Positions 32,461 to 34,113 of a stretch of 64,000 nt of DNA are shown in pieces. Source of the DNA: Kalmanozyma brasiliensis GHG001 (taxonomy: Eukaryota; Basidiomycota; Ustilaginomycetes; Ustilaginales); the NCBI RefSeq assembly GCF_000497045.1, contig NW_015961981.1, positions 746,401 through 810,400 on the forward strand. Direction: 5' to 3'. The notes beneath the pieces are model-generated. The model did not search any database, was not told the DNA's origin, and saw nothing but the letters and a program-made list of their open reading frames with translations. A program made the position numbers and the translations under genes. Each line of letters starts with the position of its first letter. Position 1 is the stretch's first letter.

Positions 32461-34113
32461 ATGGCGATGCCACGAGTGTTCCTCGCGCGGCACGGCGAGA
32501 CCGAATGGTCCATCTCGGGCCAGCACACTGGTCGATCGGACATCTCCCTCACCCCCCACGGCGAGGAAGTGATGCGACAACTGGCACCCACCATCGTCGG
32601 TGTGGGCAACGGCAAGCTGATCGACCCGACCAAGCTCAACCACATCTTTGTCAGTCCGCGCAAGCGCAGTCAGCGAACGCTCGAGATCATGCTCGAGCAC
32701 GTACCCTCGTCGGCACGCGCGGGGATCCCACCGGTCGAAATCGAGCAGGACTGCCGCGAGTGGGACTACGGTGCGTACGAGGGGTTGAAGACGGATGAGA
32801 TCCGGGCGAGACACCCTGGATGGGACATTTGGCGCGATGGTACGCCGGATCATCCTGACAAGCCGGAAGAGTTCCCAGGAGAGTCGGCGGAGCACATGTG
32901 CGCCCGCATCGACGGGGTAATCGCCAAGATCCGCTCGCTCCAGTCGACCCACGTCGACAAGCGGAAGCAGGGCCACGACGTCGGCAGCAAAACATGCGAC
33001 GTGCTGCTCGTGTGTCATGGCCACTTCAACCGCGTCTTCATCGCTCGGTGGCTCGGATTGCCTCTAACCCAGGGGAGACTGTTCGAGATGGATGCAGGCG
33101 GAATGGTCGTTCTCGGCTACGCGCATCACAACTTCGCCGAGCCGACCATCGGTGGCATGTTCTCCTCCAAGACCGGCCCACGCGGTGACGTCGAGGGCAA
33201 CCCTGGCTCGTGCGGCTCGGTCAAACACGAAGAGTTGCAGTACCTCGAACTCGTTCAACGGGTCATCTCGATGGGCGAAAGCCGACCGGACCGAACGGGA
33301 ACCGGCACCCTCGCCCTGTTCGCCCCGCAACCGAGCCTTCGGTTCGACCTGACCAACGGGACGCTGCCGCTGCTCACCACCAAGCGTGTCTTCTTCCGCG
33401 GTGTGCTCGAGGAGCTCCTCTGGTTTGTGGCTGGCAAGACGGATTCGCAGCTCCTCACCGACAAGGGCGTTCATATTTGGGACGGCAATGGATCGCGCGA
33501 GTTCCTCGACTCGCGTGGTCTCTCCCATCGTCGCACTGGTGATCTTGGACCAGTATACGGCTTTCAATGGCGTCACTTTGGCGCAACTTATCAGGACTGC
33601 GACACGGACTACACAGGTCAAGGCGTCGACCAGCTCGCATCGGTCATCGATAAGATCAAGAACAACCCCACGGACCGTCGCATTTTGCTCAGTGCGTGGA
33701 ATCCGGCCGATCTGACCCTGATGGCGCTTCCACCGTGTCACATGTTCGCCCAGTTCTTCGTCTCGAACCTCTCTGGTCCTGGGAAGAAGCAGTTGTCGTG
33801 CCAGATGTACCAGCGATCGTGCGACCTGGGTCTTGGGGTGCCGTTCAACATCGCAAGCTACGCACTGCTGACGTACATGATTGCCAAGGTGACCGATTGC
33901 GAGCCCAAGGAGCTGGTGTTGGCCATGGGCGATGCGCATGTCTACAAGGACCACGTCGAGCCGTTGAAGGTGCAGTTGGAGCGGGATCCCCTGCCTTTCC
34001 CAACGTTGAGGATCGATAGGGAGGTGACGGATATCGACGACTTCAAGTTCGAGGATTTCAAGGTCGATGGTTACAAGTGCCATGGAAAGATCGATATGAA
34101 GATGAGCGTCTAG
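32461..34113 (+). CDS. Fusion: SHB17-type sugar bisphosphatase (histidine phosphatase) + thymidylate synthase
   Basis: 550 aa in one uninterrupted frame from the ATG at 32461. Residues 1 to about 245 are a histidine phosphatase of the sedoheptulose-1,7-bisphosphatase (Shb17) type: [20 protein letters not shown] (catalytic His11), [39 protein letters not shown] (second His) and [14 protein letters not shown]. Residues about 256-550 are a complete thymidylate synthase: [68 protein letters not shown] with nucleophile Cys426, [20 protein letters not shown] and [13 protein letters not shown]. The join (about 240-258, [18 protein letters not shown]) has no stop, no ATG and no splice signal. Shb17 feeds ribose-5-phosphate synthesis and TS makes dTMP, so the two are joined in nucleotide supply. 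No separate TS gene is in this window. Confidence 0.92.

What the first reader, a model, noticed from the sequence alone, without database searches (positions are those of the whole stretch)
32461..34113. Single-ORF fusion of an SHB17-type sedoheptulose bisphosphatase with thymidylate synthase
One uninterrupted frame encodes a full histidine phosphatase with both catalytic histidines and then a full thymidylate synthase with its nucleophilic Cys. Shb17 directs carbon to ribose-5-phosphate (riboneogenesis) and TS makes dTMP, so the fusion would couple pentose supply and pyrimidine deoxynucleotide synthesis. Both are stand-alone proteins in yeast and in other fungi I know. The join has no stop, no Met and no splice signal, and the first Met of the TS part lies inside the conserved fold, which argues against two genes. 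The junction is seen in sequence; the functional coupling is inference.
Basis: partly seen in the sequence, partly recalled or inferred. Interest (0 to 1): 0.87.

Follow-up and report, generated by a model that had tools for sequence, protein, structure and literature searches.

The report
Sugar phosphatase fused to thymidylate synthase
In this smut-related fungus the only gene found for the DNA-precursor enzyme thymidylate synthase runs in one reading frame with a sugar phosphatase that likely feeds ribose synthesis, and relatives down to Malassezia skin yeasts have the same fused protein, which would serve two distant steps of making DNA precursors.

Summary
Window 32461-34113 (+) is one open frame of 550 codons: a YKR043C/Shb17-type histidine phosphatase (residues 6-225), a short linker predicted to be disordered (240-253) and a complete thymidylate synthase (260-550). 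It is not peculiar to this genome: 44 of the 120 protein clusters listed carry both domains, and the 18 of them with an organism name are all Ustilaginomycotina, six Malassezia included. Catalytic residues of both halves are the same in 31 of 31 full-length proteins aligned. No other TS and no other Shb17-like gene was found in the genome. Both domain trees allow one origin, without strong support. The likely mechanism is a two-headed enzyme made from one G1/S-type promoter (one MCB box 170 bp upstream); direct channelling is unlikely. Activities, a single protein in the cell, and coupling are inferred. Fungal TS fusions have a precedent (S. pombe Hal3-TS), so this is a new variant of a known kind. 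The literature searches found no description of it.

The parts
32461..34113 (+). Fused ORF, 550 codons plus stop
32476..33135 (+). Shb17-type histidine phosphatase domain, residues 6-225
   Evidence: Pfam PF00300 128.9 bits; YKR043C best PDB match by sequence and by fold
32491..32493 (+). Catalytic His11 in the R-H-G motif
   Evidence: 31 of 31 full-length rows; aligns with the residue that is Ala in 3ll4, titled the H13A mutant
32758..32760 (+). Glu100 of the R-E-W-D-Y motif, presumed acid/base residue
   Evidence: 31 of 31; role from general knowledge of the superfamily
33016..33018 (+). Second catalytic His186 (H-G-H motif)
   Evidence: 31 of 31
33157..33159 (+). Met233 in the junction, a possible but poorly conserved internal start
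   Evidence: Met in 12 of 31 rows
33178..33219 (+). Linker, residues 240-253, predicted disordered
   Evidence: pLDDT below 50
33220..34110 (+). Thymidylate synthase, residues 254-550
33736..33738 (+). TS nucleophile Cys426 in L-P-P-C-H
   Evidence: 31 of 31
32291..32296 (+). MCB-type box ACGCGT, 170 bp before the start codon
32087..32221 (-). tRNA-Met (CAT) with intron; leaves 239 bp between it and the start codon of the fused gene
   Evidence: ARAGORN with introns

Best explanation
The reading frame at 32461-34113 runs without a break through a Shb17-type histidine phosphatase and a complete thymidylate synthase, and it is predicted to make one two-headed enzyme that would release sedoheptulose 7-phosphate for ribose synthesis and methylate dUMP to dTMP. 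The phosphatase head likely hydrolyses sedoheptulose 1,7-bisphosphate with His11 as the phosphate carrier. The TS head likely forms the usual TS dimer, which would hold two phosphatase heads on flexible linkers. The benefit of the fusion is inferred to be joint expression: the phosphatase is put under the G1/S promoter that a TS gene normally has, so ribose supply would rise with DNA precursor demand. Direct channelling is unlikely, since many enzymes lie between sedoheptulose 7-phosphate and dUMP. Shown: the frame, both sets of active-site residues, the same fusion in 18 named Ustilaginomycotina, no second copy of TS or of a Shb17-like gene found in this genome, the MCB box. Inferred: activities, dimer, single polypeptide in the cell, regulation.
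For: Two full domains in one frame. Same fusion in 44 of 120 listed clusters; the 18 with an organism name are all Ustilaginomycotina. Lineages looked up for 8 of the 18 cover three classes and eight orders; the other 10 are placed from general knowledge. R10, H11, T23, E100, H186, H188 and TS Cys426 are 31 of 31. One TS match in the genome. Shb17 profile: 290 bits against 44 for the next of the PF00300 loci profiled; one hit with a stand-alone Shb17 relative. A classical FBPase exists elsewhere, so the phosphatase is not needed as one. N-domain model pLDDT 93.1; YKR043C structures first, including the sedoheptulose-bisphosphate complex 3oi7. In four relatives the frame stops right after H-G-H-[FYH]-[NS]-R inside the phosphatase (P0122, P0124, P0128, P0161), and TS-bearing pieces P0045, P0047, P0049 and P0050 begin with or soon enter phosphatase sequence. 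The junction tail F-S-[SA]-[KR]-[TV]-G-P is kept in 16 of 31 rows; the 15 without it are the five named Malassezia rows and ten unnamed rows. MCB boxes: 12 in the 600 bp before 12 S-phase genes, 1.2 expected at the window's rate or 2.3 at the rate of shuffles; the fused gene has one at -170. Yeast TS gene CDC21 is an MCB/MBF gene (PMC5291541, passages).
Against: No activity, transcript or protein was measured. One MCB box in 239 bp has a chance of about 4% at the window's rate and 7% at the shuffle rate, and 5 of 12 S-phase genes had none in the 600 bp tested. The loop after D-G differs: 10-11 residues in 24 of 27 matched fused rows against 2 residues in 93 of 102 matched stand-alone rows (9 of the 102 have 6-12); a Cys kept in 97 of 102 stand-alone rows is Thr or Ala in 25 of 27 fused rows (4 of 31 fused and 8 of 110 stand-alone rows did not match the pattern). 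The substrate could have shifted. Single origin is weakly supported: 37 in the TS tree, 69/59 in the phosphatase tree. Met233 could start a separate TS of 318 residues here.
Confidence: 0.62

Rival explanations
1. The fusion is functionally neutral: two unrelated housekeeping enzymes were joined once in an ancestor, each works as before, and neither regulation nor metabolism is coupled. Loss would be hard because TS is needed for growth.
For: S. pombe Hal3-TS joins TS to an unrelated enzyme and both halves work (PMC4978486 and PMC6695811, passages). Phosphatase identity falls with distance about as in unfused fungi: 42-52% for the phosphatase and 68-72% for TS in the Malassezia and Malassezia-like rows, 48% and 74% for the Phaffia stand-alones. 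The linker is predicted disordered and varies.
Against: The 18 named organisms with both domains are all of one subphylum, with no complete stand-alone TS or Shb17 from a named Ustilaginomycotina among the 120 hits listed for each half; but an essential TS would give the same persistence.
Confidence: 0.25
2. The phosphatase head has left the Shb17 function and acts on another phosphate ester, possibly one nearer to TS, such as a nucleotide or folate-related compound.
For: Changed loop and lost Cys relative to most stand-alone relatives. Histidine phosphatases can be broad in substrate; the relative Rv3214 dephosphorylates a variety of substrates, sugar phosphates among them (PMC4535450, passages).
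Against: Nearest relatives by sequence and fold are Shb17/YKR043C and Rv3214, which has FBPase activity. Active-site residues are unchanged. No other Shb17 was found in the genome.
Confidence: 0.1
3. Two proteins are made from this locus, by internal initiation at Met233 or an unseen intron or second promoter.
For: Met233 is in frame before the TS homology.
Against: Met233 is a Met in 12 of 31 rows; none of 7 intron candidates spans the join and the one GTRNG site near it does not fit GTRNGY; the junction tail is kept in frame in 16 of 31 rows.
Confidence: 0.03

Closest known systems
Shb17/YKR043C, sedoheptulose-1,7-bisphosphatase of Saccharomyces cerevisiae
   Different: Yeast protein stands alone and has about 34 residues (193-226 of the chain) that find no partner here; the loop after D-G is longer and its Cys replaced here; fused to TS here.
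Classical thymidylate synthase (ThyA type), e.g. Cryptococcus neoformans TS 2aaz
   Different: Stand-alone in Cryptococcus and other named fungi outside Ustilaginomycotina in the lists.
Schizosaccharomyces pombe Hal3-TS fusion
   Same: A fungal fusion with TS as the C-terminal half of one polypeptide (PMC4978486, PMC6695811, passages).
   Different: N-terminal partner is phosphopantothenoylcysteine decarboxylase; an independent event, judged by its partner and its host.
Bifunctional DHFR-TS of protists and plants
   Same: TS as C-terminal half of a bifunctional protein; found in the PDB searches.
   Different: Partner is DHFR, which recycles the TS product (general knowledge); in this genome DHFR lies on another contig.

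Membership tests
Thymidylate synthase (PF00303) | Full-length domain over the curated cut-off | tested here: met
   362 bits, profile 2-266 of 266, cut-off 24.3
Thymidylate synthase (PF00303) | Nucleophilic Cys in the P-C-H motif | tested here: met
   Cys426, 31 of 31 rows
Thymidylate synthase (PF00303) | TS fold | tested here: met
Thymidylate synthase (PF00303) | Obligate dimer and dTMP synthesis | not testable with these tools
   Needs purified protein
Shb17/YKR043C sedoheptulose bisphosphatase | Histidine phosphatase branch 1 with both catalytic His, Arg and Glu | tested here: met
   R10, H11, E100, H186 are 31 of 31; PF00300
Shb17/YKR043C sedoheptulose bisphosphatase | Closer to YKR043C than to other histidine phosphatases of known structure, by sequence and fold | tested here: met
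Shb17/YKR043C sedoheptulose bisphosphatase | Sole relative of fungal stand-alone Shb17 in the genome | tested here: met
   two weak PF00300 hits had no locus and were not profiled, but searched the whole genome
Shb17/YKR043C sedoheptulose bisphosphatase | Loop D-G-C-P-x-G-E-S as in most stand-alone relatives (my own observation, not a published criterion) | tested here: inconclusive
   Longer loop and Cys to Thr/Ala in most fused rows; effect on substrate unknown
Shb17/YKR043C sedoheptulose bisphosphatase | Activity on sedoheptulose 1,7-bisphosphate | not testable with these tools
   Needs an assay
DHFR-TS | N-terminal DHFR domain | tested here: not met
   No DHFR match in the ORF; DHFR matches lie on another contig
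Hal3-TS of Schizosaccharomyces | N-terminal PPCDC/Hal3 domain | tested here: not met
   Only PF00300 and PF00303 in the ORF

The most novel reading that the evidence does not exclude
Ustilaginomycotina turned riboneogenesis into an S-phase function: one ancestral fusion put the committing sugar bisphosphatase into the same polypeptide and G1/S promoter as thymidylate synthase, so that pentose supply for nucleotides is tied in amount, and perhaps in activity, to dTMP synthesis throughout the subphylum, with a retuned phosphatase loop as part of that change.
Probability: 0.25. Interest if true: 0.75.

Novelty: new variant of a known kind. Interest (0 to 1): 0.55.

Why it matters
Gene fusions can mark enzymes that cells want in step. 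This one joins a non-oxidative pentose enzyme to the last step of dTMP synthesis and is found from smuts to Malassezia, where the public names shown are thymidylate synthase (or related to it), hypothetical, uncharacterized or unnamed. Riboneogenesis mutants have weak phenotypes in yeasts (PMC8151747, PMC11817168, passages), so a lineage that ties the step to an essential S-phase enzyme would be a handle on what it is for. It may also serve as a marker trait for the subphylum and would correct annotation.

Tried and rejected
Rejected: two genes or an assembly join (same fusion in other records). Rejected: extra TS or Shb17 in this genome. Of the 10 PF00300 hits, 8 came with a locus and were profiled, and the best besides the fused ORF reached 44 bits; 2 hits, on contigs 26 and 12, came without a locus and were not profiled. 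Searches of this genome go exon by exon and score only the best candidates, and the assembly may be incomplete. Unnamed stand-alone TS P0239 looked like a possible unfused smut TS but pairs with Exidia, a stand-alone row. P0128 and P0047 looked like separate genes; both records give a contig length of 37,396, and together they read as two pieces of one fused gene cut inside the phosphatase; that they lie on the same contig is inferred. Ceraceosorus P0123 (192 aa) is a model cut before the H-G-H motif. P0071, labelled Golovinomyces, is smut-like for about 233 residues and then unlike either domain, probably a frameshift in contaminating sequence. Default ARAGORN found no tRNA; the intron setting did. 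Fold searches with the whole model listed only TS and DHFR-TS chains in the rows shown, so the phosphatase was folded alone. Not settled: whether Moniliellomycetes and Peribolosporomycetes have the fusion; neither appeared among the named hits listed. DNA of relatives was not at hand, so MCB conservation and intron positions could not be checked at DNA level. The primary Shb17 papers are not held. Methylotroph paper PMC4580311 (passages) was looked at and not needed.

Full report
What is there. The frame 32461-34113 on the + strand is open for 550 codons. It begins at the first in-frame ATG after a stop at 32266. Pfam finds two families only at E 0.001: histidine phosphatase branch 1 at residues 6-225 (128.9 bits) and thymidylate synthase at 260-550 (362 bits, profile 2-266 of 266). 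A structure model of the whole protein has mean pLDDT 90.7, with one segment under 50, residues 240-253, between two ordered domains; pTM is 0.63, so the placing of the domains relative to each other is not known.

Is it real. The protein search listed the best 120 of 7990 scored clusters; 44 of the 120, the window's own included, carry both Pfam domains. The 18 with an organism name are Sporisorium reilianum, Testicularia, Melanopsichium, Pseudozyma flocculosa, Violaceomyces, Thecaphora, Exobasidium, Tilletiopsis, Tilletia, Tilletiaria, Parajaminaea, Sympodiomycopsis and six Malassezia. For eight of them I looked up the lineage: three classes (Ustilaginomycetes, Exobasidiomycetes, Malasseziomycetes) and eight orders of Ustilaginomycotina; the other ten are placed from general knowledge. 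A ninth lineage looked up, Ceraceosorus, shows only a cut phosphatase model.

The two active sites. I aligned 31 of the 44 fused proteins. Arg10, His11, Thr23, Glu100, His186 and His188 of the phosphatase and Cys426 of TS are the same in 31 of 31. Against the window protein, TS identity is 68-91% and phosphatase identity 42-89%; the linker region is 9-72%. The phosphatase is the faster half in the Malassezia and Malassezia-like rows (42-52% against 68-72%), but unfused Phaffia shows a similar contrast (48% and 74%).

The junction. Met233 is there, before the TS homology, and could in principle start a TS of 318 residues. At that place 12 of 31 rows have Met, 11 Ile, 7 Leu and 1 Phe. The tail F-S-[SA]-[KR]-[TV]-G-P is present in 16 of 31 rows; the 15 without it are the five named Malassezia rows and ten unnamed ones. 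I scanned the ORF for fungal intron patterns: seven candidates, none across the join, and near the join one GTRNG site at 33210 that does not fit GTRNGY. In relatives the database holds pieces: P0122, P0124, P0128 and P0161 end right after H-G-H-[FYH]-[NS]-R, P0045 enters phosphatase sequence just after that point, and the TS-bearing pieces P0047, P0049 and P0050 begin with phosphatase sequence. Other fused pieces begin or end elsewhere.

Copies in this genome. TS: one match in 17.27 Mb. Histidine phosphatase: 10 matches. A profile of 14 stand-alone fungal relatives of Shb17 gave 290 bits to the fused ORF and 44 to the next, which looks like a phosphoglycerate mutase; a stand-alone relative from Vanrija hit this locus only. 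A classical FBPase, transaldolase (three matches) and a separate DHFR are present. In database searches with each half alone, the 120 listed hits held no complete stand-alone TS or Shb17 from a named Ustilaginomycotina; the named ones were Ceraceosorus (cut phosphatase model) and Malassezia pachydermatis (both domains).

Origin. In a quick tree of 50 TS rows the 25 fused rows form one side of a branch with support 37. In a tree of 49 phosphatase rows the 29 fused rows and fragments do so with 69/59, and in 71% of 200 bootstrap trees. One origin is the simplest reading and is not shown by the trees alone.

Regulation. The gene has one ACGCGT at 32291, 170 bp before the ATG, in the 239 bp between a divergent intron-bearing tRNA-Met gene and the ATG. 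To see whether this box means anything here, I took the 600 bp before 12 S-phase genes (six MCM, two ribonucleotide reductase, four B-family polymerase genes): 12 boxes in 7 of 12 genes, 1.2 expected at the window's rate, 2.3 at the rate of shuffles. Five had none; for the small reductase subunit no upstream ATG was found, so its tested stretch is not the true promoter, and for it and two MCM genes boxes lie further upstream. Twelve other loci held 4 boxes in 42.6 kb; one of these is the DHFR locus, itself a nucleotide gene. So the box is enriched at S-phase genes of this genome. For the fused gene alone the chance of one box is 4-7%. In yeast the TS gene CDC21 is an MCB/MBF gene (PMC5291541, passages).

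How it would work. The best-supported picture is a dual-function polypeptide with both heads active, a TS dimer core carrying two phosphatase heads, made when DNA is made. I do not think substrate passes from one head to the other: ribose 5-phosphate, PRPP, UMP, UDP, dUDP and dUMP lie in between (general knowledge). The chief rival is that nothing is coupled, as Hal3-TS in S. pombe suggests can happen.

Novelty. Searches of the held open-access library: TS + sedoheptulose + fusion + Ustilago, 0 papers; SHB17 + TS, 0; TS + Ustilaginomycotina, 0; TS + Malassezia + phosphoglycerate mutase, 0; TS + histidine phosphatase, 3, none on fungi by title and start of abstract; TS + Malassezia, 18, of which 15 were listed, none on this by title and start of abstract; a six-term search gave one, the Hal3 review PMC9604783 (passages). 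Papers of subscription journals are mostly not held, so absence from print is not shown. TS fusions are a known kind; the partner and the spread through the subphylum are new to what I could search.

Noticed in passing
window 32087-32221 (-): tRNA-Met (CAT) gene with an intron, missed by the default tRNA scan and found with introns allowed.
   Followed up: partly
window 29222-31723 (+): PH + P21-Rho-binding + protein kinase gene, the domain order of Cla4-type PAK kinases (domains; the name is recalled).
   Followed up: partly
window 34484-35998 (-): WD40 repeat gene, probably intron-split, downstream and convergent with the fused gene; looks like RACK1/Asc1 (name recalled; WD40).
   Followed up: partly
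L025-L036: ACGCGT boxes are enriched upstream of S-phase genes of this genome: 12 in 12 x 600 bp, 1.2 expected at the window's rate.
   Followed up: partly
proteins P0066, P0069, P0092 (unnamed database clusters): 533-547-residue proteins that look like two TS-like halves in tandem, the first half degenerate and without the usual P-C-H motif.
   Followed up: no
protein P0035 (Malassezia cuniculi): 959-residue model: the fusion followed by a membrane-protein-like part, perhaps a run-on gene model.
   Followed up: no
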